From: Agrypnia vestita
Lineage: Eukaryota > Arthropoda > Insecta > Trichoptera > Phryganeidae
Length of the DNA: 64,000 nt
Reading direction: 5' to 3'
Assembly (NCBI GenBank): GCA_016648135.1
Contig: JADDOH010002261.1
Location: 248,001 to 312,000, forward strand
Shown: positions 1-55,675 of the stretch, in pieces
How the letters are laid out: each line of letters opens with the position of its first letter
How positions within the stretch are numbered: position 1 is the stretch's first letter
The notes under the pieces: generated by a model
The model's input: only the letters and a program-made list of their open reading frames with translations
What the model was told of the DNA's origin: nothing
Database searches by the model: none
Made by a program: the position numbers and the translations under genes

Positions 1-880
1 ATTTAGATATTTTTAGATTGATAGATTATTATGTATGTTTTTTATATTGTTTTAGTTAATCAAAAAGTGGAAGACGGCACCAGCACTTTTTGATAACTCA
101 AAAATAAACCCAATTTATCAAACATAATAATTTCCGTCCGTCCGTATTTTTGTCTGTCTGTTCCCGTAACTTCGTGTGACGCCCGTAATTTCGTTCGAAT
201 TCACGGCTAAAAAACGAAATTAAACGGTCGGAGATGGGACTTGAACCTCGGGCCAGCATGCCAGATGTTGCTGTCGCCGAGTTTGCATTACCCATCAAAA
301 TTATATGCACATTGTTGTGGAGTGTTTACTTCTTCTACTATAGAGGTCGCCAGTGTGCAGTATGTACCAATTACATCTTCGGGCTTTTCTGCGACTTCTT
401 CTTCAAGGTTGAATCAAAGTCATGAGAACAGGGCGCCAAATATTGATAGTTTGTAACTGTCGTCTCTATTGAAATTAAGATTTTTGCATATTTTAATCGA
501 CTCCCTCACTAATCTAGGTTTACGAGACAGTTCTGCTGATAAGATTTTTGTCTTGTCAAAACTGATGAAATGACTAGGATTCCCTTTGGATGCATTTTCG
601 GAGATTTCTGATTCATTGGGGTTATTATTTTTAATTTCCCTAATATTTTCCTTCAAACGTGTAGTAATATTTGCGTTTCGTTTGTCTTGTGTAGAATGTT
701 CCACAATCATATGGAAGTCTCTATATACTTGGAAACTCAAAAGGTGTGCTATCCTTCACACTACCTAACATACGTAAGATCGAACTATGGGACTGAAAAT
801 TGTTTTATGTTTAATTTCAGCATTAACTCGTTGCTGAAATTTTTTTCACTGTTTTTTACATATTATCAAAACTTCGTTGC
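1..880. other. AT-rich spacer, no gene recognised
   Basis: No ORF here has coding character; the short open frames overlap each other on both strands. Base composition is more balanced between about 200 and 480, which contains a short piece related to the foldback family at 38.4 kb (see 297-335). Otherwise nothing is recognised. Confidence 0.6.
297..335 (+). repeat. Fragment related to centre of family A foldback
   Basis: About 35 bases, including TTGTTGTGGAGTGTT, match the central part of the foldback element at 38552-38586 with a few substitutions. No flanking similarity to that element was seen, so this is a relic or a shared sub-module. Confidence 0.5.
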
Positions 881-884
881 ACAA

Positions 885-1090
885 TTTACGACCTCGGAAG
901 AAATAATCAATTCGGCTCAAGAGAGCGTCCATCACCTCCGCGGTGATGGACGCTCTCTTGATGACATTGAATAAGACTTCAGCAAAATGTCGAGATTTGC
1001 TTCACAGTTAAATATATGGTTCGTATCAAATATCCATTTTATTTTACACATAAATATGTCCAACGACCGTAATAATAACTCTTAAATAGC
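885..1090 (+). mobile_element. Family A foldback element, decayed copy (A3)
   Basis: A near-perfect hairpin (arms about 911-927 and 940-957, sharing GAGAGCGTCCATCACC) is followed by the family A right-hand module: a degenerate hammerhead-like segment at 953-998, a GGTTCGTAT motif near 1019, and the tail CGACCGTAATAATAAC near 1064. The same tail occurs at 38778 and 42065. In the hammerhead-like segment CUGAUGA has become UUGAUGA and GAAAC has become AAAAU, so it is predicted inactive. Confidence 0.65.
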
Positions 1091-4000: not shown

Positions 4001-4474
4001 TACATTCAAATTTATCATCTTTTTCTAAGTTATTTGAATGGTTTACTAGGTAAGTGACCCTTATACGGCTGTCGAATAAACACACAAAATAAGTTTTATA
4101 TTTTTCTGGTATGGTTATATTGATCTCCTTGCTAGTCCAGACAGTTGGTCCTTATTTATTCATAATCGTTCAAAAACTCGCCGCAAATGGGCTATTGGTT
4201 GATGGAAGTATCGTGTATTATAAATCATGCGGCACTTCGCCGCTGCAATAGCACTTTGGGAACCATTTGGGTCCGCTAGGTCTTGTTTTTTTAGCCTAAA
4301 TTATGAGGAAAGTTCGTTGTATATGATTTGAACAAACCATTAACTTTTATTTAATCCTCTTGTGCTGGCATGTTATATTTTTAATAAAATTAATATACGT
4401 ACAGAGAATATTTTGAGTATGTTCTAATTTTTCAAGAACACAATAAATGATTTTATCCACACAGGGAGCATTAT
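1091..4474. other. AT-rich spacer with a GC-richer patch at 1560-1790
   Basis: No gene is recognised. The patch at about 1560-1790 is clearly less AT-rich than its surroundings (it contains CGGCCGGCCGGG) and is open on both strands for about 60 codons, but has no recognisable domain. It could be a conserved noncoding element, an exon, or an old repeat; sequence alone does not decide. Confidence 0.5.
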
Positions 4475-4830
4475 AAATCAATATATTATATTAAGGATGT
4501 CTCATAGAGACGATGCTATTTGTATGTGAAAGGGGGTATGGAAGTCTATTGATGGTTTATACAGATTACGATATATCATAAGGATGGCTTAAGTGATCAC
4601 TTTATACAATCTAATGTTCACTTATTCCACAACAGATGGCGGTAGTAATACAAGTCACATACGGAACGAATTTTCCATGTCTATCATAGGTGGAAGTGGT
4701 GGACGTTACACTATGTAAAGCCATAAGATAGGTCCGTCATAAGCCCTATAAACACCAAATACACTTCCAAACCTACTCTCCCATATAAATAGCTTTGTCT
4801 CTATGAGACATCTAAAATATATCTTGATTA
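4475..4830. mobile_element. MITE with long terminal inverted repeats (copy 1)
   Basis: The left end (4475-4555) and the reverse complement of the right end (about 4760-4830) align over roughly 70 bases. They share the core GATGTCTCATAGAGAC followed by an imperfect GCTATTTRTATG segment. The interior of about 200 bp has no ORF. This is the layout of a miniature inverted-repeat transposable element. It is the most diverged of three family members here; the others are at 13290-13365 (one end only) and 24711-24883. The target duplication could not be fixed in the AT-rich flanks. Confidence 0.7.
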
Positions 4831-7800
4831 AAAATATATGATTTATATGTTTACATTTTCGTCAAAAATCCATCTCGAGTAAACTTAGAATGGGGGATGG
4901 AATAAAAAATAGAAATTTAATAAACAAAAAGCCATAAAAATTATACAATATTTCGCATTTGGTCAAAATTTTTCATTTTCAGTTGCCTGTGAATGTAAAG
5001 GGAGGAAAAATTTAATTCAATTATTCATAGTATTTAAGTGAATTTCGTGGACGTTTTTATTTTAGCATTTAAATAAATCAAACTTTTGACAAAACATTGT
5101 AATCGAATCAGAATAATAATACCTACCAAACACGTTTGTGATTCTATCAAGAAGTTTAAATAAAAAAAATACATGTAAACATCGAAAAATGCTGAAAGGA
5201 ATTAAAATATATATATTTTTAAATTAACAAATTTATCTACAACTACTAGAACAAAACATAATAAAAAATATAACGTTTATATAGTAAAATTTAAAAAACT
5301 TATGTTTTCGTGTTGCAACACAATTTATGTCAATTGATTTTATTCGCGATTATCTTAAACAGAGAGTTAATTTAAATAATATAAATTTCACTAGACGGTA
5401 ACTGTTACTTTATAAAAATTAATAAAGGCCCAAAATAAGACAAAATCAATTTCTAATTACAGCATCAACTAAGAATATATACGTTAAAAAGGTTTCAATA
5501 CTGACTTTATAAAATAGCGGTAAAGTTTTTCTAGCTAATCCGATATTTAATTCTCGGAGAGTGCAAACTGATTTTTTTTAAATAAAAAAATCGATTACAT
5601 TCGGTCAGGGTTTGTGATTATTTTTGTTTAAAAGTTTATAAAAGGCTCGCATAAAGAAACCAGCAAGACCGTCAACAACAATAAAACAAATTAAATTATT
5701 ATTTTAATACATTACATTAAAAAGAAACTCTATTTTTAAGACTTATTTTGAGTAATAATTACTGCAGAGTAAGCATGATTATTAAAATATTTGAAAAATT
5801 ACAGTTTTACATTAAATTTATTTTTCAACCTAATTTCGCTCATTAAAAATACATTTAAAATAATTATAAAACACTCATACTTACATTTTGTATATTTTTT
5901 ATTGTAAATATATAATAATTATTTGTTTGAATAAGATTTGTAATAAATTTAAAACAACCATTAGCGTTTTTTCCACAGAACTAATCATTCTGGTTTTGAT
6001 AATCTTAATATAAAAAATTGGACATTTTTTATAATTACGTATTTGAAAAATTGTGCAAAATTTACACATCAGAAACAAAGAGCAATCAAAATCATTCAAT
6101 GATCATGTTTTTTAAAGAAATTTTATAAATTTATTATCATATTAACATAAATAAATAAAGGTATTTTAAAATAATCAAAATACCGTAAACCATGAATCAA
6201 GTTTTAACGACAGTCCCTTTCCTAAAATATTTCCACGTGTGCAGTTAAGTATCTAAAAAAATGATTGATTCTTTAATCAGAATATTTGTTTTCTTAATAT
6301 TCGTTTTTTTATCACTCTGATATAGGAAATAATAGTTAACAAAACCGTATGAAAATCAAGTGGCAACATAAACAAAGTTTACTATAATTGTAATTAAAAA
6401 AAATTTACGAAAACGAAACAAGCGCAAATATTTTAAATTATGGTTATCATAACGTACAGTACATATTTATTCATAATTAAAATGATCTAAATTACCAAAT
6501 TATTATTGCAGATTCTACGATCTTCAAATAAAAAATTACTTAATGTAAAATATTCTAATTCGTTTACTTTTGATTGCAAAAAGTAAAGGTTAAACTAATT
6601 ATTTCAAAGAGTGAGCTGAGCGGAGCGCAGAAAGCAGCTTTGACGAGAAATGTTACTGAGAGGAAATTAATTTTCCCGACCACAGATGCCGCCCACAGCG
6701 CTTAATACACGCCCACAGACTTAGTGATGGAAAATGAAGAACAAAATGGATGCGGTTCCATGTCTTACCTTTTAATTTTGCTAAGTATTTAAAATCAGGG
6801 CAACCAGAGTTGCTCAGAAATAATAAGAATTGGTGTGTTTGACGTCTAATGGACAGTTACGCGCGTGATCCAAAAAATATCGATTTTGTATTGTATTTTT
6901 TGCTCAGAATTGACATTTAATATTCATCAATTTATTTGCATTTTATTTATTTGTGATCTCGTTATTATTAAATTAACAAGTTCATTAAATAATATTTTAT
7001 ATGACAGGTGTATAACTATAGGTAATATAAAAATAATGTTAATTTTGATAAATTATATTACAATTAACATAATATTTAATAAATAAATATTATACCATAC
7101 ATTTGATATAAGATTGTAACATAAACAAAGATTTAAATTCTATAAAGTATTTTTTTTATTGTTCACAGAAATTATTTACAGCAAAAAATTCTGCCGATTT
7201 CTAGGCTAGACCTGTTCCAGAGAAAACAGCCCCTCATTTTAAAGTATTTTCTTCGTGTTAAAGAAAAGTACTATAAACAATATAACAAAAACACAAGTGA
7301 CACCAGCAGTATAAAAAACACAAGTAATATGAATAGTATAAAAATACACGATAAACTAACTCGATTAGAAGTCTAAATAAGAAAAAAATACCTAGTATTC
7401 ACAAACAAAAGACAGAAAAATATTATCGACAAATATTTTCTACACAATATGATTTTAAAACCCATCTTAACGTTCATGTTCGAATAAAGTTTAATAACAT
7501 CAAAGGTCTGGTAATTAATTACACAGACTGAACATTGAATCCAATAATAAATATTTTATTTTTGAACTCGTTCAATGATAAATTTTTACAAAGTAACATG
7601 TGATCGAATACTTTATTTGAATTATCTTTTCACAGAAAAAAATTAACCAGCTACTTTTCAAGAAACATAAATATTATTTTATTAGATTAGGTATACATAC
7701 TTAACCCTTACATATCGGCGTGCACTCAATATTTTGATCTGAGCTGTACATAACTTGAATTTCTACGAAATAAAGTATGTATCTAGTAAAATCACAATTT

Positions 7801-23075: not shown

Positions 23076-24710
23076 CCACTGTTTTTTCAATGACAAATGT
23101 CATATAGTGCGTTTTTACTCATCCAAAAATATATCTGGTCAACATTATTCACAATAATATGAAGAAGTTTGCAGTAATTGCGCAAATTATCTTAGAAATA
23201 TTTTACCCATTAAATCTGTTGTTCTATACAAATATAAAAAAAATATTACTGACCCAAAATTCATGTACGACGTAAAAGTTGTCTTAATACTTAAAAGAGT
23301 CTTACATAGAAATAAAAAAAAAATCAATAAAAACTGCTTTATTACGGAAAAATGTCATTACACAATAAAAGGTATTTTTCCGTACAAATTGGAAATATAA
23401 AATTAATAGAAATAACACGCAAAAATTCCAGTGTGAATGAATTTTATGTTCATAAACGAAACAAATGCGAAAATGAACGAAAATGATCAAAAAACATACA
23501 TACTCGTATATGTTTGATGTATTGTTCAGTACCAACTACCAACCCTCCTGCTATTGAATGCCGATAGGCGTTTTCAGCATACGGCGAATGTTTGCGAGGA
23601 CGCCTATAGACGTTTTCAGCACTGGGCGTCTTAAAAACATAAACTATGTTTATTTTATTATTCTTACGTGAGCTTAATAGTAATTTTAATTTTATTACTC
23701 GAAATTTAAGACTCTCAGAATCTTTAATCGATAGGGAAAGTATTAAGGGGGAATTTACCTACTTACGAAATGCGACAAAAGGCAATTTTTGTGAATTTAA
23801 AAAAAACCTTTATGAACTATGGTATTGATATTATTTTTATATTAAAGTACCCACATACTTTTATGAATTTGTTAAATTTTTTTTATTAAAAAATTTTCAA
23901 CATTGGCGGAAAATTTTTGGGTTCTGTCGACTGCCGAAAAAAAAGGTCCTCCGCAGTGACCACTTCCATTTTATGTGTAATCATCAGGATAAAAAAAAAA
24001 CAAAAAGGATTTTTTGAAATTATCGATTATTGACAAAATGGCGGGCATTTGATTTTAAAATAGCCTTTTTTGGGGAAAAATTCGGGTTTATTATACCAAA
24101 AAAAAAAGTCACTTAAAGTCCTACGACAAAGAATAGATAATTATGTATAGAATAACCACTAGAAATTTCAAGTTAATCGGTTCAGTGTTTGCCAAGATAT
24201 TTTAGTCACCGATGTTTGTTACATAAAATCATCGATTCCAGGTCCATAATATAAGTCTTCCACCTTGCTTTGAATTCCCGTATCATCGAGCACTCTTCAG
24301 AAACATAATAAAAATATGTCTAAAGTTTCTATTATGAAAGAGCCCGACTGGCAGCTACCTGCATGTAGCACGGCGCGTAATCAACAATCAAATGCCACTA
24401 TTATCAGCTATAATTTTATTTTTTTTAATTTTTGCTTGAAATTTACTAATATTAATAACCAGACATTCTTAAGATCTCAAGCTTTAAGAAAATGCATAAA
24501 TTTTAAAAATGATTTTTCCGAAATGTCTAGTAGGTATTGTCCCCTTAAAGCAACAACATTTTTTAACACAGTTTAGGTAGAAATAAAATTTATTTATTTA
24601 TTAGGTAGTGACAAAATGAGCCAGAATTAATGATTGAAAGGAAGATGTAGGTACTACATGGATGGAAATACTATAGAGGAGAGGAGAAAAGTTAGCGAAA
24701 GTAATATTGA
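23076..24710. other. AT-rich spacer, no gene recognised
   Basis: Long A runs and only chance ORFs; no domain or repeat copy identified. Confidence 0.55.
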
Positions 24711-24883
24711 TTATGGATAAATTATGGAAGTTTCACAGAGACGAAGCTATTATTTATATATGAGAAAAGTGGATGGAAGTCATATAGGTTGTTAGCCCTG
24801 AGTCATCGTATAAGGGACTTCCATCCACTTTTATCATATACAAATAGCTTCGTCTCTGTGAATCTTCTATAATTTATCCTTAA
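24711..24883. mobile_element. MITE, near-perfect hairpin (copy 3, best preserved)
   Basis: The left arm (24711-24781) and right arm (about 24815-24883) are inverted copies with about 65 bases of high identity. They share TTCACAGAGACGAAGCTATT and AAAAGTGGATGGAAGTC. The loop is only about 35 bp. There is no ORF. The same ends occur at 4475-4830 and 13290-13365. Confidence 0.85.
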
Positions 24884-26889
24884 TTAATTAATCATCCCTC
24901 TGGAGACCAAATGAAGTAGTTGTGTCCTTAGAGCATACTTTCATAAATTAACATTGTTAAACAAATTAATTTCGTCAGTTTCTAATAAATTAATTATTTG
25001 TATTTTCACGTAATCCGTGTAAAAAATAATTTTTTTTAAATTTTTTTTTTTTTATTTATTTTTTTACTTTTTATTTTTTTATTTTTTTTTATTTATTAGA
25101 GACACTAACAGGATAATGGGTACATGACACTCAGATAATAAACATTATAGTGAAGACTATGCCCATTATCCCAATTACAAGTGTCTTCGGCACGCTCTAG
25201 TAACATGTATTTTTGTAATTAATTTATTTCACATGTACATTTATGTATATTATATATTTGTGTTTGAGTGTAGTGCGATTAGTATTTAATGGATCTATAG
25301 GTTCATGTCGTCGTTTAGAAAATGGTTTGAATTAAGTAAGTTTAATATTTCACCAGTAGATGAGAGATTTTCATAATCACGCAATATGAGTAGTAAAATA
25401 TAAAATTATAACAAAACCAACGTACCTAGGGAAAATACGGTTTATAATTTTTCCAATTTAATGATTATCGCGTATAAACTCTACTACGTTAACGCTACTA
25501 AGTTCTTCAATAATATAATAAAATTAATTATTTTTCTCTGAACAGCATCGCAGTGCGCTATCATTTTCATCAACACTCGTTTAGGACTAACAATATAAAA
25601 ATTCCCCAGGCATTCCTGCTTCAAGCCGACCAGGTCAAATTATAGCGTATACAAATAAAAAAATTAAAAAGTGCCTGTCAGTTTTAAAAACTAATAGTTA
25701 ATAGAAAGTAGATTATTAATTCTGCCACGGGCAGGCTCTGAATATTTTCTCTATAAAAGCAAAATTTTAAAGTTTTGACAGTTTAACAAATACTTTTAAT
25801 TAAACGGGTAAACGTCATAAAAACTGTTTGTTTGAAAAATTATGAGCTACGTTAAAACAGTAATTAACTAGTTGAGATAAAATTTTATTTGCGTACAATT
25901 TTCTAAATATAATTTTGTGATATATAAAACAAAATTTTAAACACTTACTCCTTCTCCTCCTGCATTATCTATACAATTGATATTGTCTACCGCGTTAGAT
26001 ATCATCACTTTGTTGACTGCGGCAAAAAAAAAAACAAAGAAGAAGACTCCTCCAAAGTTTTTGCTATCACTAGATGGTAGAAGTGGAAGGAATCGCACTT
26101 AATGGAGGATTTTATAGCACCCTATGTAAATTGGAAATTACTACAAAGGTTTGGGATAATTTACAAGATTCTGGAAGCATCGCGAAAATCGGGTCTTATA
26201 AATACGCAGTGGAATCGTGCTGAAAATACTGTTGTTTTGACAAGTAAGACGAGTCTATAGAGTGGTGAACCCATAACGTCGCTAGTGGGGTACTTAGTGT
26301 GGAGTTTTCTAGTGCGAACGTGAGCGAATTAAGCAGCGTGCATCAGTAGGTATACTAGACAAAAAAATTTCAGGAGTGACAATTATTGCGAACAATGAAA
26401 TTGGTGTGAATTTAAGAACAGTGTTCCGATTAAAATTGTATCTACTGACTTTGGTGAATAAATAAAAAATTTTAACTGAAATGAATGGGTGTGTTCAATG
26501 ACTAGATAAATACGCCCATTCGTAAAATATTTATGTGTTTGCAGTATATAAGTGTGTGCGTGTATGTGTGTGTGTTTGTGTGTGACAAAAGCAAATGCAG
26601 GATCGATGGACAGAGATACAGGATGGCAAGTAATACTCAAGATTTTACAAGCGTTGGTTTCTTACTTTTATTTATTTTTATTTAAAATATGACAGCGATC
26701 TGAAAGGTCTACGGATAACATTTAACATACATCAATATAAAAATATTATTTATTTATATATTTATTTATTTAACGCCCTTATGGGCTTTTACAATATACA
26801 GAATATTTAAAAAAAAAATAACATAAGACAGTTAAAATAATAATAATAATAAATAATACAATTAAAAGTTACAATAATAATAGTTAAAA

Positions 26890-30894: not shown

Positions 30895-31045
30895 ATTAAT
30901 TTTAATTAAAAAAACTTTAACCACTTCACTAGTTACTCTACGTCTTCCGGTTTCGACACCACTGTATCTTCATCAGGACGGACGCAAACTAACTATCCAT
31001 TACTTATTCTAGCAAACAAATTAATTTTTAAACAGGAGTTTCTTG
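30895..31045 (-). mobile_element. Family B element, copy B1
   Basis: Aligns with 27575-27690 and 32048-32140: AACTTT, TTAACCACTT, the hammerhead-like module, then ACTAACTATCCATTACTTAT, which is also present in B3. Only the left inverted repeat was seen. Confidence 0.7.
30941..30980 (-). ncRNA. Hammerhead-ribozyme-like motif (family B, copy B1)
   Basis: Read 5'-3' on the minus strand: CGUC (stem I), CUGAUGA (30976-30970), one A, stem II GAUAC with GUGUC around AGUG (5 pairs including a G-U), GAAAC (30954-30950), CGGAA, then GACG, which pairs with the initial CGUC. All conserved core bases are present except that position 16.1, normally U, is A. Cleavage is therefore doubtful for this copy. 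The sister copy B2 has the U. Confidence 0.5.
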
Positions 31046-31974: not shown

Positions 31975-32195
31975 ACATTTGTAATGTTTATAGTGTTAAC
32001 TTTGGATATAATTATTCGTATTTTAAATAAAAAAAAATAAAAAATTTAACAACTTTGTATTAACCACTTAACTAGTAACTGTACGTCTACCGGTTTTGAT
32101 ACCACTGTATCTTCATCAGGACGGACACATCCTGTTCTAGCTAAGTGGTTAATACAAAGTTGTTTAGTTAAAATTAATACCTATAGACATTAATA
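31975..32195 (-). mobile_element. Family B element, best-preserved copy (B2)
   Basis: A perfect 23-bp inverted repeat (32048-32070 and 32142-32164, containing ACTTTGTATTAACCACTTA) brackets a hammerhead-like module. The left flank GTTTATAG-GTTAA also occurs in B3 at 27505. There is no ORF. Confidence 0.75.
32084..32123 (-). ncRNA. Hammerhead-ribozyme-like motif (family B, copy B2)
   Basis: Minus strand, 5'-3': CGUC, CUGAUGA (32119-32113), one A, stem II GAUAC/GUAUC around AGUG (5 perfect pairs), then AAAA where GAAA is expected, a palindromic ACCGGU, A as the cleavage-site base (triplet GUA), and GACG pairing with CGUC. The only core defect is G12 to A. Combining B1 and B2 gives a complete consensus core. 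Confidence 0.5.
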
Positions 32196-34989: not shown

Positions 34990-37904
34990 CTTCTCCAGAT
35001 TGATTCAACGCCCGGGTTGCGATTTGTGATGTTCTTAAAAATTCACCTCCACCTTTTACCGGGTAGCTATTGTAATTTGACAGCTACTAGCAGCTTTAGA
35101 TGGTCTATCGAATCCACCTTTCCATCCACTATAACCTTCTCTTGCATCTCCAGCAGTCTAGCATCATTTGCCAAAATTTACATTATATGCAAAAATAAAA
35201 TGTAAAATGAAAATGGGATTGAAATGTTTAATTTTTGAAACTATTGTGTAAATAATGCAAAGAAACAAGATTTCAACATTAATAATGCACGATTTTCGAA
35301 GCTAAATTTGCCATTACAGTATTACAATGAAACTCTGCCGTCTTGAATATTATATTGAATAAAGCCTTTTCAATTCATGATTTTTTAATACCACCATTCT
35401 CTTTGACAGACAAAGCGCTACTTGAACAGATTTATATTATACACGTTCAAGATTCGGCGAAGGTTCGTCACGAGGGTGAATTAAAAATGGAATTTAAAAA
35501 AAAATCATAAGACGATCAGAAAGGGGGCATTGTTCCGTGCGAGGGGAGGGGGTGTAATGTTTACATGCTATTGTCGGGGAAAATTGAGATTTTTCTGGAT
35601 TAAAGTTCTTTATATTGTTAGCTGGGGGGTATGTATGAATTCATTCACTCAACTTTTCCTTTCACGAATACAAATTTAATTTTTTCCTCCCTCGCTGTGA
35701 ATGGTCCGTGTATGCTCGCCATGGAAACGTGCTCTTTGTGATATTCTTCTGCTATTGTCCAATTTGTGTAAGCCGCGGTCCTGCCTCAAAAAAATCTTTT
35801 GGCTCTGTACACACCTTTATAATTACGGTCCACGTTCTTTTAACCTACTATGTACACAGGTGAGTCGATAACCTCAATTTATAAAGTAAACTTAATTTAA
35901 TCTCTTAAATAAATGTGACTCTAAGGTGTCATTTTCATTTTCATGTATTCATGTATTGTTTTCAATAAAAGAGTAGAAAGGGGCATATTAAAAATAAAAG
36001 CTTTGATATATTACGATTATTTATCTACAATTCCTTAATGTTGCGAAAATAATTTCTGACTTTAAGCATGAAATTCAACTGAACGAAATTTTATTTTTAG
36101 TGTTATTCAAACTAGGAACTATTTGATTATATGTATTTTTGCCAAATTAGAAGCGTACAAAATTTATCCTTGTACAATAAAATTCAGGTAGTTTAGATTT
36201 CTTTAAAAGCATTTTCTGCTATTACGTAATGTTTTTCGATCATCTCAATTTTATAGAATTTTCGTAGACTAGAAGGACCAACATACCTGGATGTTTTCCG
36301 AACTTTAACATTTATCTCCGAGATTTAAGGGTAACAGTAAGCACACGCATCTTAAGACAAAATATAATATTACTAGCGTGAGAGCTAATTTGTCGATAGA
36401 AGTTTAAATATTTAAGTTTTTCAATATATAACTCAAAGTCTGAAAGCTTCTGGATTACCAATTACCAACCTTTGTGTTTTGAACATAATAAGTATAAAAA
36501 CAAAAAATCTTGATGAATTTGTTTTATTTTCGGAATTAATTTATTATTCTAAAATGAATAATTTCTTTCTGGAAAAAATCAGTAAGCAGAATGATGAGAT
36601 GAATATTTAACTCTTTGAATGACAATCATATTACACCTTGATAATAATATTGTAACTATTCATGCTAAGTCATAATGCCACTATAAATCTCAAACGGTTA
36701 CCTGGATATATTATTTTCGCAATAAATTGAGATAAACCTTAATGGCATGAGTCGCATATTTTCTTGATATCTATTGCATGACATGGCAAAAACAAAAACG
36801 CAATTCTAAACACAGCCAAGAATTTGGCCATTTAATCGAAAGTAATAAACAATTGTTTGATACTCTCGATTTTCTCTTGATCGGATCGAAACACCCATTT
36901 ATGTCTATATGTATATGATATGTATATAATTATAGATTGTATATAATATGTTATGTATGTATATAATAAAAGATTATATATTATATGTTAACACTAAATA
37001 AAGCATATATAACGACCTAATAGGACCTGAGATAAATTGAACCAAAATAATGATGATTGGCGATGGAATTGGACTACTGGCCAAGCAAAAATAGCGTGCA
37101 GCATGGCAAAGAGATCATCTTCTTTTTCTTTTTCTTTTAGTAGATCTGTTGATATAGATTGATACAGATTTGATACAAAAAACTACGCCTCCTGGGATGA
37201 CGAGGTCCAGCTATCCCTCCATTTTTTTCGGTGGACCCGGTTGTGTCATCCGAAGGGGATTTCATTCGCTGTATGCACGTGTCTGCCACTGTAGATTCTG
37301 GCTTCATCATGCTATGTCCTCTATTTTGTAGGTTTTTTCCTTATGTCTGCATTTCGGACACAATCACGTAGAGTTTTTCTAGTTCACCTTCATTTTTAGG
37401 ACAGAGAGATCATGAATAATTATTTTTTTTGGATCCTGTATAAATGATAACTAACGTGTTGCTATAATTAAGATAAGAAATTGTATGGGAGATGGAAGAA
37501 ATTCTAGAGTTTGATTATCAAAACCAACTGGCCTTAATTAAATTAAATTTTAATAAAGAAAATTATATATCTTTTTAAAAATGTTTAGTTTTTGCAATTA
37601 TTATTAAAAATATAAATATTTTCATCAATAACCTGAAATAAATCATTGTTAATATTTGAGACATTATTGCTACAGCTTCACTCTGAAAACTAAAAATATA
37701 TATTAGGTATCTTGGCATTACCTTCACCTTATTTTATTACGATTCATAGACCCGAATACTTTAATGAGAGACAATAATTTAATGATTTTAAGGTATGTAC
37801 AAGGTATTTTTTAAATTATTTAAGTATTAATTCTATATTCGGGCCATATTCGTTAGTTTTATTTTTACTTTCTCACATATATTATGAATATCATGTCTCA
37901 TTCT
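34990..37904. other. Spacer with moderate-GC patches at 35500-35880 and 37130-37400
   Basis: No gene is recognised. Both patches lack an ORF of convincing length and have no copy elsewhere in the window. An AT-only microsatellite-like tract runs 36900-37000. Confidence 0.45.
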
Positions 37905-38045
37905 GTTTCTTGTATTGTTTTCTATTGTTGACTTTGGCATAAAAAATGCTGAATTGGGTGGCGAAAGTGTACGGCCGATACGGGAGCTATTGCTCATATA
38001 ACGGTCCTGGGTGTGTGGTGGGTCCCTCTTCACTGTCTAACTGAT
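37905..38045 (-). repeat. Dispersed coding-like repeat, inverted pair with 21655-21780
   Basis: On the minus strand it reads SEKRDPPHTQDRYMSNSSR and continues open through PPNSAFFMPKSTIENN, further than the 21.7-kb copy. In-frame similarity between two dead copies argues for a coding ancestor. Identity unknown. Confidence 0.55.
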
Positions 38046-38075
38046 GCGCAGTAAATGGAAAAGTGGTCCCTCTAC

Positions 38076-38143
38076 AATAATTTCTACAATGTTAACGCCA
38101 AATCGATATTATCGATGGATATATTAACATTGTAGAAATTATT
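38076..38143. repeat. Perfect 20-bp inverted repeat, 28-nt spacer
   Basis: AATAATTTCTACAATGTTAA at 38076-38095 is exactly complementary to 38124-38143. The spacer contains two ATCGAT motifs. It lies 250 bp before the family A foldback and might be a tiny MITE. Confidence 0.9.
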
Positions 38144-38188
38144 CATGATGACAGTTTAGGTGTATGGAAGACAAACTATGTTATGTTA

Positions 38189-38264
38189 TTCGAGTTTAAT
38201 TATATTTTATATTTTAACCAAACATCTTCGAGTTTAATTATATTTTATATTTTAACCAAAAATC
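38189..38264 (+). repeat. Tandem duplication, 2 x 38 bp
   Basis: The unit starting TTCGAGTTTAATTATATTTT at 38189 recurs at 38227 with one or two differences. Confidence 0.95.
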
Positions 38265-38448
38265 TCACTTCACTTGTTCATGAAATATGCCGATATTGAG
38301 TAGAGATAATATACGTTTTCCATCGATTTTCCATCAATTTCCATGAAAAAGCGGTAGAACAATAGACCTTCGTCTTAAAAAAATGATATTGTTCAACTTT
38401 AAATAGTTACGGATATTTTATACGAACCGTATGTTTTTCCGAGAGACA

Positions 38449-38494
38449 GTTCTCGACGTTTCGTTGAAGTCGTATTCAACATCATCAGGAGAAC
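38449..38494 (-). ncRNA. Hammerhead-ribozyme-like motif, intact core (A1 left arm)
   Basis: Minus strand, 5'-3': GUUCUC (stem I), CUGAUGA (38488-38482), one U, stem II GUUGAA/UUCAAC closing UACGAC (6 perfect pairs), GAAAC (38462-38458), GUC (38457-38455), then GAGAAC, which pairs with GUUCUC over 6 of 6 positions. Stem III would be the palindrome ACGU, too short for a monomer loop but suited to a paired (dimeric) hammerhead. Predicted cleavage is after C at 38455. The one departure from the textbook core is the unpaired U between A9 and stem II. In vitro activity is not shown by sequence. Confidence 0.65.
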
Positions 38495-38684
38495 GACCTG
38501 TACCCGCGGAGGTACAGGGCGGACTGACTAATGTTTCGTGAACGGGAACGTAAATTATATGCTCTTTGTTGTGGAGTGTTCACTTTTTATATCGCACAAG
38601 TGAACACTCCGAAACAAAGTGCATATAATTCACGGAAACATTAATCAGTCCGCCCTATGCCTCCCCGGGTCGTACCTACAGGTC

Positions 38685-38730
38685 GTACTCCTGATGACGT
38701 TGAATACGACTTCGACGAAACGTCGAGAAT
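38685..38730 (+). ncRNA. Hammerhead-ribozyme-like motif (A1 right arm)
   Basis: Plus strand: stem I GUACUC, CUGAUGA (38691-38697), one C, stem II GUUGAA/UUCGAC (6 pairs, one G-U) around UACGAC, GAAAC (38717-38721), GUC (38722-38724), GAGAAU. Stem I has three outermost core-proximal pairs, one A-A mismatch, then two more. Core bases are complete. Compensating G-U rather than random mismatch in stem II fits selection or recent common origin with the left arm. Confidence 0.6.
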
Positions 38731-39532
38731 TGTCTCTCGGAAAAATATCCGTAGCCATTTACAGTTCAGTATGTCTAACGACCGTAATAATAACCTTAAC
38801 TCTTTAAAAAATTATATTGTTTATGAGACGACAATGATTAAGTCACAAATAAAAAGAATATGATTTCTTCGTGTCGTGAAAAATATTCGTTTTGTCATTC
38901 AGACTATGTGCTTCAGCGCGAGTTTCGTTAGCTTGACGCCTCGAATTACCTGAGAAGTTTTACCCAATTTGGCGGGTTTATCCAGACCTGGCACCTCCCG
39001 AGATGCAGGTGGATCGTTGCACTTCATGTCAAGTCTCATTACATTCACTTGTGTTGTAAGAAGACTTCTCCGTTCTTTCATTTTGTTCTCCGGGTCCATC
39101 TGCGTCGCTTTTTACAATACGGGACCTATACTAAAACAGAATTAAGTAAATTCAATTCTTTCAGCCTTGTATGCAATCCTTTTCAAATCGAAGTTTTCAG
39201 AATTTTGAGTGATGGTGAAGGAATAGAAAGTTGACATTTATTTTTAAATATTCATGGCTTATCTTTTGTAAAACAATAGACCGTCATAAAAGTAATTTAT
39301 ATCAAATATTAAAAATTAAATCGCTTTGATATGTCACATAAAATGATTAAAACCTTGTGAAAATTTGAAAAATATTTTTTGTAAAATTGTTGTAATTTTG
39401 TCATATGTTACTGTAGATACCGTAAATTTTTAAATTACTATGCCTGTGATAAAATGCTTCATAAATACAAAAATATTTAAAAAAAAATTATGATGTGTTT
39501 TTATCCACTTATTATTAATTATTCATTAATTT

Positions 39533-39574
39533 ACACCTAGATGTTTCGGAAAAACCTTTCCATCGTCAGAGTGT
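39533..39574 (-). ncRNA. Hammerhead-ribozyme-like motif (family C left arm)
   Basis: Minus strand, 5'-3': ACACU (stem I), CUGACGA (39569-39563, allowed N7 = C), one U, stem II GGAAA/UUUCC around GGUU (5 perfect pairs), GAAAC (39547-39543), AUCU with cleavage-site A (triplet CUA), then GGUGU pairing with ACACU (4 Watson-Crick pairs plus G-U). The stem III palindrome seen intact in the right arm (ACAUGU) is one base off here. Confidence 0.5.
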
Positions 39575-39767
39575 TTTATAAATGTTAAAATATCAAAATT
39601 AATTATTTTTTGTTTTTGTTTTTGAAATTATTTTTAAAAATTATTGCTGAAGTTCTTGAATTCACAAAATTATTGGATTTTTTTAGAATAATTGTGTGTA
39701 ATAAAGAACTCCAGCAAAAATAATAGTTAAAAATAAATTTTCATTTTGATATATTGACATTTACAAA

Positions 39768-39804
39768 TCACCCCGACGATGGAAAGGTTTTTCCGAAACA
39801 TGTA
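39768..39804 (+). ncRNA. Degenerate hammerhead-like motif (family C right arm)
   Basis: CUGACGA has become CCGACGA, stem II GGAAA/UUUCC and GAAAC are kept, the palindrome ACAUGU followed by A is intact, but no stem I pairing remains. Predicted inactive. Confidence 0.45.
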
Positions 39805-39833
39805 ATAAAAAAATGATAATAAGTAGATACAAA

Positions 39834-41854
39834 CAAATAGTACAATCAATTGTTTTAAATGTCAATTCACAAAGTTCCCCAACTAATTGAAAAAACAAAA
39901 ATATGATTCCAAAATCACTCACCATTTTCTAAATTGACTCCATTATTTGCAAAGCGGCGGTTTTAATTATTCTAATCCTCTAATGTATAAGATTTATTTA
40001 AATTGCATATTCGGTATCCGATCGCCCTCCGCGCTTCACGCGTGAGGGTTACAGGTTAAGAGGCACAAATTATCACGCCCAGTCATCTTCAGGACGCCGT
40101 AAGATCGATCGGAATAACACGTTTATGATTTCTTATTAAGGAAGGACTTCTTTTAAAGGCAATATGGTAAAAAAGTACAGAGACAAAATGATAAATAATG
40201 TACGTGAGGCTTGAGTGAAAAGTTGTGGAAAAAATTTTCATGTGGCCAATAAGTACAAGCAGGAATCGATAAAAGTTGTGTCTGTGGATAGATTTCGATA
40301 TCCCATCTACCGCGGGAGGACTAGGGATTACAGACAAAGGATTTTTTGAAAAATTAATTCGTTGTAGTAAGAATAGAGCCTTGTTTACGAGTTGAATAAT
40401 TTATGCAAAAAAACTCTGAAAAGAGTGCACAATTAGTACTTGCACTTTTATTACTTTCATAAAAAGATAATACGTATTAAACGGCTGCCGGTTTCGCGAA
40501 TAAAATATGTCCAAATTAAATTTACTTTCCCTAACTTCGTCACAAAAGGTTGTTTGCAAATTAGAATGTGAAGGACTGCTTACCTTAATTGAAAGAAAAG
40601 TAATAAAAAAAAACAAAAGTTTTTATTTCTCCGCTTGAAAGTACGGTGTTGGCACTTGTGTTAAGGGGTTGGCTATTTCTTTTAATTAATTTTTGTCTCT
40701 GGCGAGGAATTTTTCCAGTTGTGAAATGAATTTTCTTCTCGGCACATAAAATTTGCAATAAATTATGCACTTAATGTGTATTTGGAAGCGGGTGACGACA
40801 TCGATCTATATTCAAATGAGGGAAAAGCGTTGGCTCAATTTTTAAATGATATTCTTATACAGGCAATACTCTTCGATAAAAATAGCCGACCTTAAAGAAA
40901 ATAGAGGGTCGCATTTAAATTTTCTTCAAAAACATCACTGAATGAATACCCGAGAAAATAATGATAATAACGTGTAGATTCAACGGTTTAAATAAAATGC
41001 ATTATGTATTAAACTTTTTTCGTAGATACACTTTACATATAGTCATGAATATTTCATATTGAATGGTGACTATGAAAATTGGTGATACCATTCCACAGAA
41101 TCTGTCTGTCATTCATACAAAAAAATTTCGTACCAATAGAAGTATTATTTAAAAATACTGTTAAATATTTTTTATTAGATGGTTTCAAATATCTATGTTA
41201 TTTTAAATTTCATATATGTGGAAATTCAAGGAGGTATAACCTTTCCAAATATTTCTACAAATGTTAAAATATATGGCCACAGTAACAGATCATAATGTTT
41301 TCTAGTGCGGCAAATACAAGAAAGAATTTTCTAAAAAAATTTGAGATTAATGTGTTCTGTCATCGTTCTTCCAATATTTGTTAGTACTGTTTTTATTAAG
41401 TTTACTTTCTTTATGATACAGTTATTTATATTTGTAAATTATTTTAAAAAATTACACTCTAGTTTCAATGCACACCCCTTTTAAGACATACCTTAATATT
41501 ATTATGTAAAAAAGAGGGTCTTGTCATCAAAGCATTAAAATACTTTATTTCGTAAGTGAGTTGTTGAAATCTATAGTGGACTATGGGACAAAATATTTTT
41601 TAGAGTTTTATATTCTCTTCAAATACGATAAATTTGTATTGTCTCTGAAAATAGGACATGAATACAGTTTTTACAGATTGGATGAAAAAATACATTGATC
41701 TTTATAGCCTAAAATGCACGAATTTATGCAAAAGCTGGATTATGTAACACATAGTCCACTTATTCTTCATGACGAGCGCAGCTGGTGGAGATAACCATGA
41801 TGTCAAGGTTTGAATGAAATCAAATAGTCAATTGTTATTTTATTTAAGTGTTAA
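39834..41854. other. Spacer, GC-richer at 40010-40330
   Basis: No gene is recognised. The 10-bp palindrome TCACGCGTGA lies near 40036 in a GC-richer patch. Remaining ORFs are chance. Confidence 0.5.
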
Positions 41855-42085
41855 ATAAACCGTATATTTTAAACGAACCGTATATATTACAGAGAAGCAA
41901 GTCTTGACGTTTCACTGAAGTCTTCTTCAGAAGAGCGTCCTATCACGGCGGAGGTATAAATCGAACTGCACTTCCGCCGTGATAGGACGCTCTCCTGATG
42001 AAGCTGAATAAGACTTCAGTGAAACGTCGAGATTTTGTTTATTTATTTTATTTTATTTATTTTATCGACCGTAATAATAACCTTC
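41855..42085. mobile_element. Family A foldback element, shorter copy (A2)
   Basis: Arms 41901-41955 and 41968-42032 fold back, sharing TGACGTTTCACTGAAGTCTT and AGAGCGTCCTATCACGGCGG. Flanking ACGAACCGTATA at 41872 and tail CGACCGTAATAATAACC at 42065 match the other family A copies. The left-arm ribozyme module lost about 10 bases, removing the 5' strand of stem II. The right-arm module is complete. Confidence 0.8.
41991..42032 (+). ncRNA. Hammerhead-ribozyme-like motif (A2 right arm)
   Basis: Plus strand: UCUC (stem I), CUGAUGA (41995-42001), one A, stem II GCUGAA/UUCAGU around UAAGAC (6 pairs, closing G-U), GAAAC (42021-42025), GUC (42026-42028), GAGA pairing with UCUC. All core bases are present. 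Stem II differs from A1 at paired positions (C-G here, U-A or U-G there), which is a covariation within the family. Confidence 0.55.
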
Positions 42086-44395
42086 ACTATTTTGTAATTG
42101 TTACCTATCTTATTCAATTAGGTAATGGTTATGACTTAGTGTATCGAAAAAAAGATTTTTTCGTGTAAATGAAATCAATTTGAAAATAATTTAAAAAAAA
42201 TCCTATTTAAAAGGTTAAAAATTAATAACAAGAAAATTACGCATTTTTATCAAAAAGAATCGTTAGATAATGTTATTAGTAAGATGAGTGCAAAATTTGA
42301 ACAAAATCGGCTACATATTTTTTGAGATACCTCCACCATTCTAAAAAAGTGAGTTTCGAGAAAAAAGCAAAAGAATAATGTAATTCGTTTAAAATTCACC
42401 TGCCACTCTAGCTTTAAATGAGTGATGACTCAAATTATTTTAATAACTTCAAACTATAAACGTAAGTTTTTGAAAAAAAAAGTTTTTTTTTCAAAATGTC
42501 AAGGTGGTGAAATCTCTTAAAACTGTTAATAAATTACCTGATAAATTGTATATTATACTTACTCTCTTAGATATGGGAATAAATTAATGAATATTGCAAT
42601 CAGAAAAAAGGGCAGAAGTACGGAATAATGGGTTTTCATTATCACGTTATCGTTATACGTTTTCAGGATAATCAAAGAATTCGCCAACCATCATTCTCGT
42701 TAACGTTTCGTTTCTTGCGATACCAAATAAATATTTTCATAATCATTAATGCGTGCAATTATAACATTAATTGAGAGCTGTATTTTTTATAATCTAAACC
42801 TAAAACTTTTTAAAGGAAATATTAAATATTGTCTAATGCTCGTCGATTATTGAATCTTCTAAATACGTGATCACGCCGGGTTTTTCGTGGACAAACTCTG
42901 TTTTGTCATTTCTTTCATACTATTAATCGGAAGACATGATTATCAATTTAATGAATTATATTAGATTATAAAATGTAAGGGCAGTCGTTTGTTAATATCA
43001 TCCATATGAAGATAGATTAGTACTGACAAAAAAATTGTAAATAAACTTTATTTGAGCTTTTTAAATAATCTTTTATTGAAGGAAAACGTAATTTATGCCC
43101 TTTTTCTCATCCAATATAATACACACATATTAGTCGAACCAGATCGAATGGGTTTCCAATTTCATCAGTAATTTAAAAAAAATTCGACCATAATCACATT
43201 TTTGTGGCGAAGTCTAAATATTTTCTTATAAGTATCAATACTTAATATGAGTAGTATCGACTTGGACATTAAATTCGTCGTAGAAAAATATGTATATACA
43301 TGGTTACAAACCAATCTTCATGCATTAATATTAAATTATTCTTTCTATTGTCTAAATAACAATAGCGGATGAGTGTTTTAATTTTAAACAACGAAGAGCA
43401 GTATTGCAGAATTTTATGCAGCAAATGTAGAAATTGCTGAATTGGAGACGGTTTGGTGAGCCGCATTGTTTCCAGAACTCATTAGAATCGGACCGCCACA
43501 ACCCTGCTGCAGGATGGGGGTGGATTTTCCGGTCTCGATTAAAAAATATTCTGACGCCGAAAATCGTCTTTATATTCGCTTAAAAAATTTTGTTTCAAAA
43601 TTTTTATTGTGAATTTGTAAAATAATCTATAATCCTTCATCCATTTCAGCAGCATTTTTAACTCAGGGAATATCCATAAATCAATGAAGCCGTGATTGGA
43701 GAGTTGGCTTGTCAAACCAGGGAAATGCTGTATTTAGCCAAGAAAGCTTGGATCGGATGCGTAGAACGGGCTGGTGTATTATCGCAATAGAGCTGCCAAT
43801 GTTAGCTGCTTCGACACGAAGTTTGCAGACACTTACTAACTTTTATTTATAAACAAGAATACTGGAAACAAACTTAAGCTGGAATACTATTCTTTATTTC
43901 GCACTAGTCGCTCGAGAATATTCCACTTTTCTCTGATACACTTTATTCGCGCCGTTTCTATTGCATAGACTTCACGGTTCGCTTGTCTATTTTCTTCGCT
44001 TCTATGGTCAATCTCAGCTATTACAACAAAAACTGTCAGAGGTAGCGAAGGCGTTCTTTTTGAATCTTCTAGCATATTTTTATGTGTTCGGTAGATTTCT
44101 AGATTATGGTAAAATCTTTAAGATTGTTCGAAAAACTTCGGTTGCCTGCAGTTCTTCACGATTTCAGAATGTCGTTTTGTTGTAGGAGTACGCGTAAAAC
44201 TTAGAACGCTAAGAGTGGGGTACTAAAGACTCAAACATACCTACAAGATAAAATATTATGATTAAACAACAAGTTTTGACTCAATATCATGGTTTAATGC
44301 ATTGCGAACGACTATGGATATGTTTTTCACGATAACGATAAAAAATCTACGATATGTGAATACATAAATGTAAAATGGTATTTGCCCCCTATGTG
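42086..44395. other. AT-rich spacer; GC-richer patches 43440-43570 and 43690-43830
   Basis: No gene is recognised. The two patches contain no frame of convincing length and no repeat partner in this window. Confidence 0.5.
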
Positions 44396-54548: not shown

Positions 54549-55550
54549 TTAATCAAAGTATGTACCATTGCTATCTATGCATCTCATAGGTAGTTCATCG
54601 ATCCCTTTACTAAAAAAACCATTCGGACGGGAATCAATAAAATCTTTGAAGGTGGTTTGGACTGCCCCATCGGAGTTGAATTTTTTCCTTTGCAAGAAGT
54701 TATCCAAATTTCGAAAAAATAGTAATCTGTTGGGGCAAGGTACGGAGAGTACGGTGGATGTCTTAGATATTCCAATTGAAGCTCCTCTTATTTGGTAGCC
54801 GTCTGTTGTGCAGTGTGTGGTCTAGCGTTATCATGAAGCAGCAGTGGCCTAGAGCAATTAACCAGCCTCGGTTGTTTAGCAGCTAGCTTTTCCATCATGG
54901 TTTGCAGTTGCTGACAATAGACATCTGCCGTAATCGTCTGGCCAGATTTCTGTAGTGAACGACACCAGCACTAGTCCACCAAACGCTCACAAGTAACTTT
55001 TTTGGAGTCAATTTTCGCTTGGGGCATGGTTTGGCTGGTTCGGCAGGGTTCAGCCATTGCGATGAGCACTTCCGATTATCGTACAGGATCCACTTTTCAT
55101 CACAGGTAATGATTCGATTTAAAATCCCTTCATTATTGTCCCGTTTGAGTAATGCAACGCAGCAGTCAAGGCGCGATTGTTGATTTGCTTCACTCAATTC
55201 GTGAGGTACCCACCTTTTAAGCTTTTTCACCTTACCAATTTGCTTCAAGTGGATTAAAACAGTTTTATCACAAAACCGCAGTCTGCAGCTAACTCGGATG
55301 TGGTTTGCGATGGATCCGCTTCCGCAATAGCCTTCAATTCTTCATTATCAACTTTGGTCTCCGGCCGTCCATGGGGCTTGTTCTGCAGGTCGAAATTTCC
55401 AGAAAGAAAACGTTGGAACCAAAAACGCACTGTGTTTTCTTTTGCGGCACCGTCGCCATACACATCATTAATCCTTCGAGCCATTTCTGCAGCACTGGTG
55501 CCACGGTGGAACTCGTACTCGTAAATAACGCGATATTTCAAGTTTTTCAT
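54549..55550 (-). pseudogene. mariner transposase, broken by three frameshifts and a stop
   Basis: Starts at ATG 55548-55550 (MKNLKYRVIYEYEF) and ends at TAA 54549-54551 after NGTYFD, about 334 codons as expected. Seen in order: the paired-type helix-turn-helix DNA-binding domain, the WVPHEL linker motif, catalytic Asp 1 in ITCDEKW (55099-55101), Asp 2 in HDNARPH (54830-54832) and Asp 3 in LAPTDYYFF (54725-54727), giving the DD34D spacing. Damage: single-base frameshifts near 55265, 54955 and 54716, an in-frame TAA at 54788-54790, Asp to Tyr in the conserved YSPDL motif (54740-54742, not a catalytic residue), and loss of three codons near the C-terminus. It cannot make active enzyme. Confidence 0.95.
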
Positions 55551-55675
55551 TTTGTAAACTGAGTGACGCAAAGAAAAAAACAATTGAGGAAAAAACAAAT
55601 GAATTATAATTTTCAAAACACAAATACATGAGTAAATAGCTGTATAAAAATGAGATCAAATTTGCCAGTACGGCA

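What the first reader, a model, noticed from the sequence alone, without database searches (positions are those of the whole stretch)
38449..38494. Intact hammerhead-ribozyme-like core on a foldback element
Every conserved hammerhead core base is present on the minus strand (CUGAUGA, GAAA, GUC). Stem I pairs 6 of 6 and stem II 6 of 6, although nothing in a random AT-rich region would favour this. Stem III is the palindrome ACGU, as in dimeric hammerheads of Penelope-like elements and retrozymes. One extra U between A9 and stem II is non-canonical.
Basis: partly seen in the sequence, partly recalled or inferred. Interest (0 to 1): 0.85.

Follow-up and report, generated by a model that had tools for sequence, protein, structure and literature searches.

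The report
Penelope retrotransposon hammerhead in inverted repeat
The sequence is a real small self-cleaving-RNA motif of a known kind, carried by the end repeats of an old Penelope-type jumping element that landed as a mirror-image pair, so it adds another example rather than something new.

Summary
On the minus strand at 38449-38494 every hammerhead core base, a 6-bp stem I, a 6-bp stem II and a loop-less ACGU stem III are present. A descriptor of this shape finds 3 sites in the window against a mean of 0.0075 in 400 shuffles. Rfam's type I model lands on exactly these coordinates but below its cut-off (17.5 bits against 34); a textbook phage hammerhead scores only 20.2, so that cut-off is not decisive.

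The motif is most likely the ribozyme of a Penelope-like element (PLE). It sits in both arms of a head-to-head inverted repeat flanked by a probable 21-bp target duplication, with a 'tail' on one side only: the anatomy reported for inverted Penelope pLTRs. A second such pair lies at 41841-42092. A third, decayed copy (917-1085) adjoins a broken Penelope endonuclease fragment (profile E 8e-13). The 'extra U' is one base that all four copies with a readable core have. A review describes thousands of such minimal hammerheads in animal genomes, so this is a new member of a known kind. Whether this copy cleaves is untested; read-through RNA would fold into a long hairpin. The host genome could not be searched.

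The parts
38449..38494 (-). Hammerhead 1L: all core bases, stem I 6/6, stem II 6/6, loop-less ACGU stem III, one inserted U (38481); predicted cleavage after C17 at 38455, between 38455 and 38454
   Evidence: (RF00163 17.5 bits)
38685..38730 (+). Hammerhead 1R in the other arm: core intact, one inserted C, stem II 6 bp with one G-U, stem I 5 of 6
38394..38800 (.). Element 1: head-to-head inverted pair of pLTR-like arms, about 198 and 209 bp (38428-38751 is self-complementary at 79% over 342 alignment columns; best ungapped arm stretch 75 nt at 92%)
38373..38393 (+). Left copy of probable target-site duplication (TCTTAAAAAAATGATATTGTT)
   Evidence: matches 38801-38821 at 19 of 21; 0 of 2000 random pairs of 46-base segments and 2 of 2000 of 66-base segments score as high. 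The repeat was first noticed (E 0.064), so the test was made after seeing it
38801..38821 (+). Right copy of probable target-site duplication (TCTTTAAAAAATTATATTGTT)
38776..38800 (+). 3' 'tail' with the 16-mer CGACCGTAATAATAAC, on the right side only; the 16-mer is shared exactly with 42066-42081 and 1064-1079
38498..38517 (-). Small hairpin CTGTACC-TCCGCG-GGTACAG just upstream of the ribozyme; its TCCGC lies at the palindrome centre of element 3
   Evidence: sequence
41841..42092 (.). Element 2: second head-to-head pair of the same family (arms 41899-41955 and 41970-42035) with the same tail on the right
41989..42034 (+). Hammerhead 2R: core intact, one inserted A, stem II 6 bp with a U-A to C-G double change and a G-U; stem I 5 of 6
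41900..41936 (-). Hammerhead 2L: core destroyed by an internal deletion (9 alignment columns)
   Evidence: R1 model 27.1 bits, E 1.7e-5 (not in the model)
917..1085 (+). Element 3: palindromic junction 917-961, decayed hammerhead 952-997 (C3 to U, first G of GAAA to A, ACGU to AUGU), tail to about 1085
423..755 (-). C-terminal part of a broken Penelope GIY-YIG endonuclease; its YIG-like stretch lies in another frame at 643-720
   Evidence: profile of 120 database proteins, E 8.2e-13 and 0.16 (first and second of 2097 six-frame segments)
298..337 (-). Start of the downstream pLTR of element 3, 87.5% identical over 40 nt to the centre of element 1

Best explanation
38394-38800 is an old insertion made by a Penelope-like element. 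It consists of two end repeats (pLTRs) joined head to head with no coding part left. Each pLTR carries the element's minimal type I hammerhead, and the left arm (38449-38494, minus) still has an intact core. In a working element the ribozyme would lie at the pLTR-ORF junction of RNAs running outward from the pLTR. Two copies would pair through the self-complementary ACGU of stem III, or a Penelope protein would help folding, and the RNA would be cut after C17 (38455). Shown: the motif, its relatives, the inverted anatomy, the probable target duplication and the Penelope endonuclease remnant next to one relative. Inferred: self-priming as the origin of the inversion, dimeric or protein-assisted cleavage, and the idea that A9-U-G10.1 doubles as the ORF start codon. 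This locus is probably a non-coding relic, and its ribozyme would be masked in read-through RNA.
For: Motif beyond chance; RF00163 fit at the exact coordinates. A second homologous foldback, and a decayed copy with an endonuclease remnant, profile E 8.2e-13. Probable 21-bp AT-rich target duplication. Passages of PMC3846280: inverted pLTRs, most often head to head, with palindromes at the junction; optional 31-bp tail on one inverted pLTR; pLTRs of 181-218 bp (arms here about 198 and 209); pLTR holding the first 12 codons; AT-rich targets. [quoted passage not shown] Passages of PMC11167929: the Anolis PLE ribozyme spans the pLTR-ORF junction, with C3 and G8 before the start codon and the cut 26 bp downstream of it; in 1L an ATG begins at A9 and the cut lies 28 nt from its first base.
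Against: No Rfam match at gathering threshold. In all three intact copies the predicted monomer fold is not the hammerhead (1L -15.6 against -11.8 kcal/mol, 1R -11.5 against -4.9, 2R -11.6 against -7.3), and two 1L strands are predicted to form a plain duplex (the double hammerhead itself was not scored). The whole element folds as one long hairpin (-240.9 kcal/mol). Covariation among the 4 copies does not exceed shuffles (109 to 323 of 500 reach the observed values). No reverse transcriptase was seen among the 13 ORFs scanned with Pfam, and the only ORF of at least 150 aa has 151. The endonuclease profile was fished with a recalled consensus. The ATG at A9 is present only in 1L of family A (1R ACG, 2R AAG). 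Only element 1 has a convincing target duplication. In Anolis, ribozyme cleavage was not needed for insertion in vitro and no RNA ends at the cut site were found (PMC11167929 passages).
Confidence: 0.87

Rival explanations
1. The foldbacks are a non-autonomous mobile family in their own right (a miniature inverted-repeat element that captured a Penelope hammerhead), amplified as units rather than made one at a time by Penelope.
For: Elements 1 and 2 share the same overall layout, with a tail on the right only. Other hammerhead-like foldbacks occur at 39493-39838 and 32048-32164.
Against: The junction points differ: element 1 turns at the pLTR start, element 2 much nearer the ribozyme with a 14-nt spacer, element 3 there without that spacer. 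Element 3 lies beside endonuclease sequence.
Confidence: 0.12
2. Retrozyme or satellite-type hammerhead, working through circular RNAs.
For: Same catalytic core; animal retrozymes have low GC content and carry type I hammerheads (passages of PMC7229834).
Against: Copies are inverted and no direct tandem of the motif was found in 37800-39200 or 41300-42900; stem III has no loop; a Penelope endonuclease remnant is present.
Confidence: 0.02
3. Chance: an inverted-repeat element whose stems happen to resemble a hammerhead.
For: Foldbacks are rich in complementary words; Rfam gives no threshold hit; covariation is inconclusive.
Against: Core, both stems and a palindromic stem III recur in three copies; strict descriptor mean 0.0075 in 400 shuffles. 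Stem II pairs within one arm, which the foldback itself does not require.
Confidence: 0.03
4. Not exclusive of the above: today the sequence matters as a long hairpin (source of small RNAs) and not as a ribozyme.
For: Whole element folds at -240.9 kcal/mol, z -24; sub-threshold microRNA-precursor matches to the centre.
Against: Does not explain the hammerhead core; no expression data.
Confidence: 0.2

Closest known systems
Minimal type I hammerheads of Penelope-like elements (Cervera and De la Pena 2014; Lunse, Weinberg and Breaker 2017: not held, known here from reference lists and reviews)
   Same: CUGAUGA / GAAA core, loop-less stem III, in Penelope pLTRs and dispersed in non-coding DNA of animals (PMC7761336, PMC6155905 passages)
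   Different: Nothing firm. The one-base insertion after A9 could not be compared with the published alignments; [quoted passage not shown]
PAc, the Penelope-like element of Anolis (PMC11167929, passages)
   Same: Ribozyme across the pLTR-ORF junction, start codon after G8, cut 26 bp downstream of it (28 nt from the first base of the ATG in 1L)
   Different: PAc has a complete ORF and tandem repeats; here only relics in inverted pairs
Inverted pLTR structures of Penelope families of Adineta vaga (PMC3846280, passages)
   Same: Head-to-head pLTRs of similar length (181-218 bp there), palindromic junctions, one-sided tail, TSD, AT-rich target, 5'-truncated copies with inverted pLTRs
   Different: Its TSDs in the passages seen are 8-10 bp, here 21; its main text does not use the word hammerhead (0 occurrences)
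Rfam RF00163 Hammerhead_1
   Same: Matches at the exact coordinates, model positions 1-45 of 45
   Different: 17.5 bits against a gathering score of 34; stem III loop absent

Membership tests
Hammerhead ribozyme (type I, minimal) | CUGANGA ... GAAA ... UH core in order | tested here: met
Hammerhead ribozyme (type I, minimal) | Stems I and II pair | tested here: met
   6/6 and 6/6 in 1L; stem I 5 of 6 in 1R and 2R
Hammerhead ribozyme (type I, minimal) | Stem III formed, or palindromic so that a dimer can form it | tested here: met
   ACGU in 1L, 1R and 2R; dimer formation itself not shown
Hammerhead ribozyme (type I, minimal) | Rfam score at or above gathering | tested here: not met
   17.5 against 34 bits. 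Weak criterion: one textbook phage hammerhead scores 20.2 and 0 of 7 viral loci holding such motifs give a hammerhead match at gathering
Hammerhead ribozyme (type I, minimal) | Covariation of stems | tested here: inconclusive
   4 sequences, one double change, not above shuffles; pairing (91.5% of cells) does exceed all six slid versions (30 to 46%)
Hammerhead ribozyme (type I, minimal) | Self-cleavage | not testable with these tools
   needs in vitro transcription
Penelope-like element pLTR | Linked GIY-YIG endonuclease | tested here: met
   broken fragment at 423-755 (-) beside element 3, E 8.2e-13; not beside element 1 itself. Pfam scans gave no GIY-YIG match
Penelope-like element pLTR | Penelope-type reverse transcriptase | not tested
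   no profile run for it; none named among 13 ORFs scanned with Pfam
Penelope-like element pLTR | Inverted or direct pLTRs, one-sided tail, TSD | tested here: met
   TSD convincing only for element 1
Retrozyme | Direct tandem or LTR-flanked monomers with one hammerhead each | tested here: not met
   copies are inverted; no direct tandem of the motif in the two regions scanned

The most novel reading that the evidence does not exclude
Head-to-head hammerhead pairs are a Penelope counterpart of retrozymes. Small non-autonomous foldbacks would be moved in trans by Penelope proteins, with two outward-facing ribozymes trimming divergent transcripts. The base inserted after A9 would be kept because it places a start codon inside the ribozyme, so that cleavage removes the start and acts as a translation switch. 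Three different hammerhead-like families of this form in one 64-kb window would fit.
Probability: 0.12. Interest if true: 0.6.

Novelty: new member of a known kind. Interest (0 to 1): 0.33.

Why it matters
Why Penelope-like elements keep a weak hammerhead is an open question; [quoted passage not shown] This locus gives a TSD-flanked inverted pair with one intact and one slightly damaged ribozyme, plus two further copies. Together they could test dimer versus protein-assisted cleavage and how inverted pLTR pairs arise.

Tried and rejected
Rfam at gathering threshold on the whole window: nothing. Viral-contig scan for the motif: 13 loci. By eye 10 of the 13 are type I hammerheads closed by an ACGUC-GAGA-GACGU stem III, so unrelated to this one; the other 3 (L006, L010, L013) lack that closure and look like chance. 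A family-specific pattern found 0. The tail 16-mer found 11 loci, not examined. CTCCTGATGATG...GAAACGTC found 2; I read both and saw no convincing stem II. The endonuclease fragment as query: 8 candidate stretches in viral contigs, none confirmed; 4 and then 61 candidates in the protein database, none at E 0.01 (alone; with a longer read-through reference). Pfam gave only weak unrelated matches below cut-off, the PDB nothing significant (best E 0.44). A search with an alignment of 19 of the 120 listed endonuclease proteins: viral contigs 20 candidate stretches, none confirmed; genome contigs 37 candidates, 1 locus, L027, from a Treponema MAG contig whose end looks Penelope-like, probably a chimera, with no hammerhead by my scan.

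Considered and rejected: retrozyme (inverted copies); chance palindrome (shuffles).

Full report
WHAT IS THERE. The minus strand at 38449-38494 reads GTTCTC-CTGATGA-T-GTTGAA-TACGAC-TTCAAC-GAAA-CGTC-GAGAAC: a type I hammerhead in which stem III is only the self-complementary ACGU. The strict descriptor (core, stem II of at least 5 bp, palindromic stem III, at least 4 of 6 stem I pairs) finds 3 sites in the window and a mean of 0.0075, largest 1, in 400 dinucleotide shuffles. All 3 sites are copies of one repeat: 38488 (-), 38691 (+) and 41995 (+).

RFAM. No family passes its gathering score anywhere in the window, and on 601 bases no hammerhead is among the 14 matches listed. Given only 76 bases, RF00163 fits 38449-38494 with 17.5 bits (E 0.038 for that short stretch, so not significant for 64 kb). 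As a yardstick, a textbook phage hammerhead (L002, the one locus tested this way) gets 20.2 bits, and none of 7 viral loci holding such motifs gives a hammerhead at the gathering score.

THE ELEMENT. The ribozyme lies in the left arm of a foldback. Arms 38428-38502 and 38677-38751 are 92% complementary, and further arm pairs run to the centre at about 38592; over 342 alignment columns the element is 79% self-complementary. Both ribozymes point outward, that is, the arms are head to head. The insertion is bounded by a direct 21-mer, 38373-38393 and 38801-38821, 19 of 21 identical. I noticed it in a self-comparison (E 0.064) and then tested it: among random pairs from the window, 0 of 2000 (46-base segments) and 2 of 2000 (66-base segments) match as well. 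The right arm alone ends in a tail with CGACCGTAATAATAAC.

RELATIVES IN THE WINDOW. Element 2 (about 41841-42092) is a second head-to-head pair with the same tail on the right. Its right ribozyme is intact; its left one has lost part of the core. No convincing target duplication was found for it (247 and 32 of 2000 random pairs do as well) or for element 3 (1819 and 1988 of 2000). Element 3 (917-1085) has a palindromic junction, a ribozyme with three changes in core and stem III, and the tail. Beside it, on the minus strand at 423-755, lies the C-terminal part of a Penelope endonuclease: E 8.2e-13 in a profile of 120 database proteins, the best of 2097 six-frame segments. The second best (E 0.16, not significant alone) is the matching YIG-like stretch in another frame just upstream. 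Pfam, the PDB and two protein-database searches had not recognised the fragment; the profile came from proteins fished with a recalled consensus. Beyond the endonuclease, 298-337 matches the centre of element 1, as a downstream pLTR should.

FIT TO KNOWN PENELOPE ANATOMY. Passages of PMC3846280 describe pLTRs of 181-218 bp in inverted pairs, most often head to head, palindromes at the junction, an optional tail on one inverted pLTR, the first 12 codons of the ORF inside the pLTR, target duplications (8 to 10 bp in the passages seen), AT-rich targets and 5'-truncated copies. The authors propose self-priming. The arms here are about 198 and 209 bp; the 21-bp duplication is longer than theirs. 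Passages of PMC7761336 and PMC6155905 say that minimal type I hammerheads lacking helix III occur in Penelope pLTRs and (PMC7761336) by the thousand, mostly dispersed in non-coding animal DNA. The original papers (Cervera 2014, Lunse 2017) were not held.

THE EXTRA BASE. One base stands between A9 and stem II in 1L (U), 1R (C), 2R (A) and 3 (C). PMC10085705 notes that known alignments have no more than one or two bases there (passage). By eye the viral hammerhead in L005 has one too. In the Anolis element PAc the start codon comes after G8 and the cut is 26 bp downstream of it (PMC11167929 passages). In 1L an ATG begins at A9, and the cut lies 28 nt from its first base. Counted from the ATG inside CTGATGA, the frame is open for 28 codons in 1L, 37 in 1R and 56 in 2R, with shared residues M-x-LN-x-TS-x-KRR; in copy 3 it closes after 16 (read by hand). 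That the extra base belongs to the start codon is inference: 1R and 2R lack the second ATG.

WOULD IT CUT? Unknown. For a 1L monomer the best fold pairs GAUG of the core with CGUC (-15.6 kcal/mol; hammerhead fold -11.8); 1R and 2R are worse off. Two 1L strands are predicted to form a plain duplex; a double hammerhead was not scored. An RNA reading through the element forms one hairpin of -240.9 kcal/mol (element 2 -99.2), which would bury both ribozymes. I infer that only outward RNAs starting near the centre could expose them. Stem covariation over 4 copies is not above shuffles, though pairing exceeds the slid controls.

MORE OF THE SAME. Two further hammerhead-like families with the same inserted base appear in foldbacks. 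One is at 39493-39838, where 27 nt around the core are identical between arms that are 68% alike overall. The other is at 32048-32164, with a relative at 30939-30982 (R1 model 14.1 bits, E 0.13, and 11.1 bits, E 0.99). Their stem III palindromes would be ACAUGU and ACCGGU. The evidence is weaker: no copy meets the strict descriptor, and the relaxed one, which adds only 32119 (-) to the three sites, has a mean of 0.155, largest 3, per shuffle. The R1 model also lists 530-580 (+), 16.7 bits, E 0.022, inside the endonuclease fragment; I did not follow it.

VERDICT. A genuine, ordinary member of the Penelope hammerhead family in an inverted pLTR pair. Papers were searched. I saw no paper on hammerheads in head-to-head Penelope pairs in those listings, but the two key papers could not be read, so no claim of novelty rests on this.

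Noticed in passing
39493-39838: A different foldback with a hammerhead-like core in each arm: 39569 (-) ACACT-CTGACGA-T-GGAAA..TTTCC-GAAACATCTA-GGTGT, and 39773 (+) with U4 to C and GAAACATGTA; 27 nt around the core are identical between arms 68% alike overall.
   Followed up: partly
30939-30982 and 32082-32125 (-): Third hammerhead-like family, CTGATGA-A-GATAC-AGTG-GTRTC-GAAA or AAAA-CCGG; the second copy is framed by inverted repeats (32048-32164).
   Followed up: partly
530-580 (+): Sub-threshold match to the family-A model (16.7 bits, E 0.022), inside the endonuclease fragment; perhaps chance.
   Followed up: no
54895-55655 (-): Broken mariner-type transposase (Pfam HTH_48 and Transposase_1); suggests an animal, probably insect, genome (inference).
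   Followed up: no
38554-38628: Centre of element 1 gives sub-threshold Rfam microRNA-precursor matches (mir-9416 38.3 bits against a cut-off of 100).
   Followed up: no
L007:277-802: A GOLLD RNA (277-751) is followed closely by a type I hammerhead (766-802) in a viral contig with tRNAs.
   Followed up: no
L001, L002, L003, L004, L005, L007, L008, L009, L011, L012: Viral contigs with hammerheads closed by the same ACGUC-GAGA-GACGU stem III, some identical between contigs; of the 7 scanned none passes Rfam's gathering score. L005 has one extra base after A9.
   Followed up: partly
24706-24888 and 4470-4835: Other inverted-repeat elements sharing similar words (AGAGACGAAGCTATT / AGAGACGATGCTATT) in both places; no hammerhead descriptor match there.
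   Followed up: no
L027:5001-5113: Penelope-like endonuclease tail at the edge of a locus from a Treponema MAG contig, probably an assembly chimera with animal DNA.
   Followed up: partly
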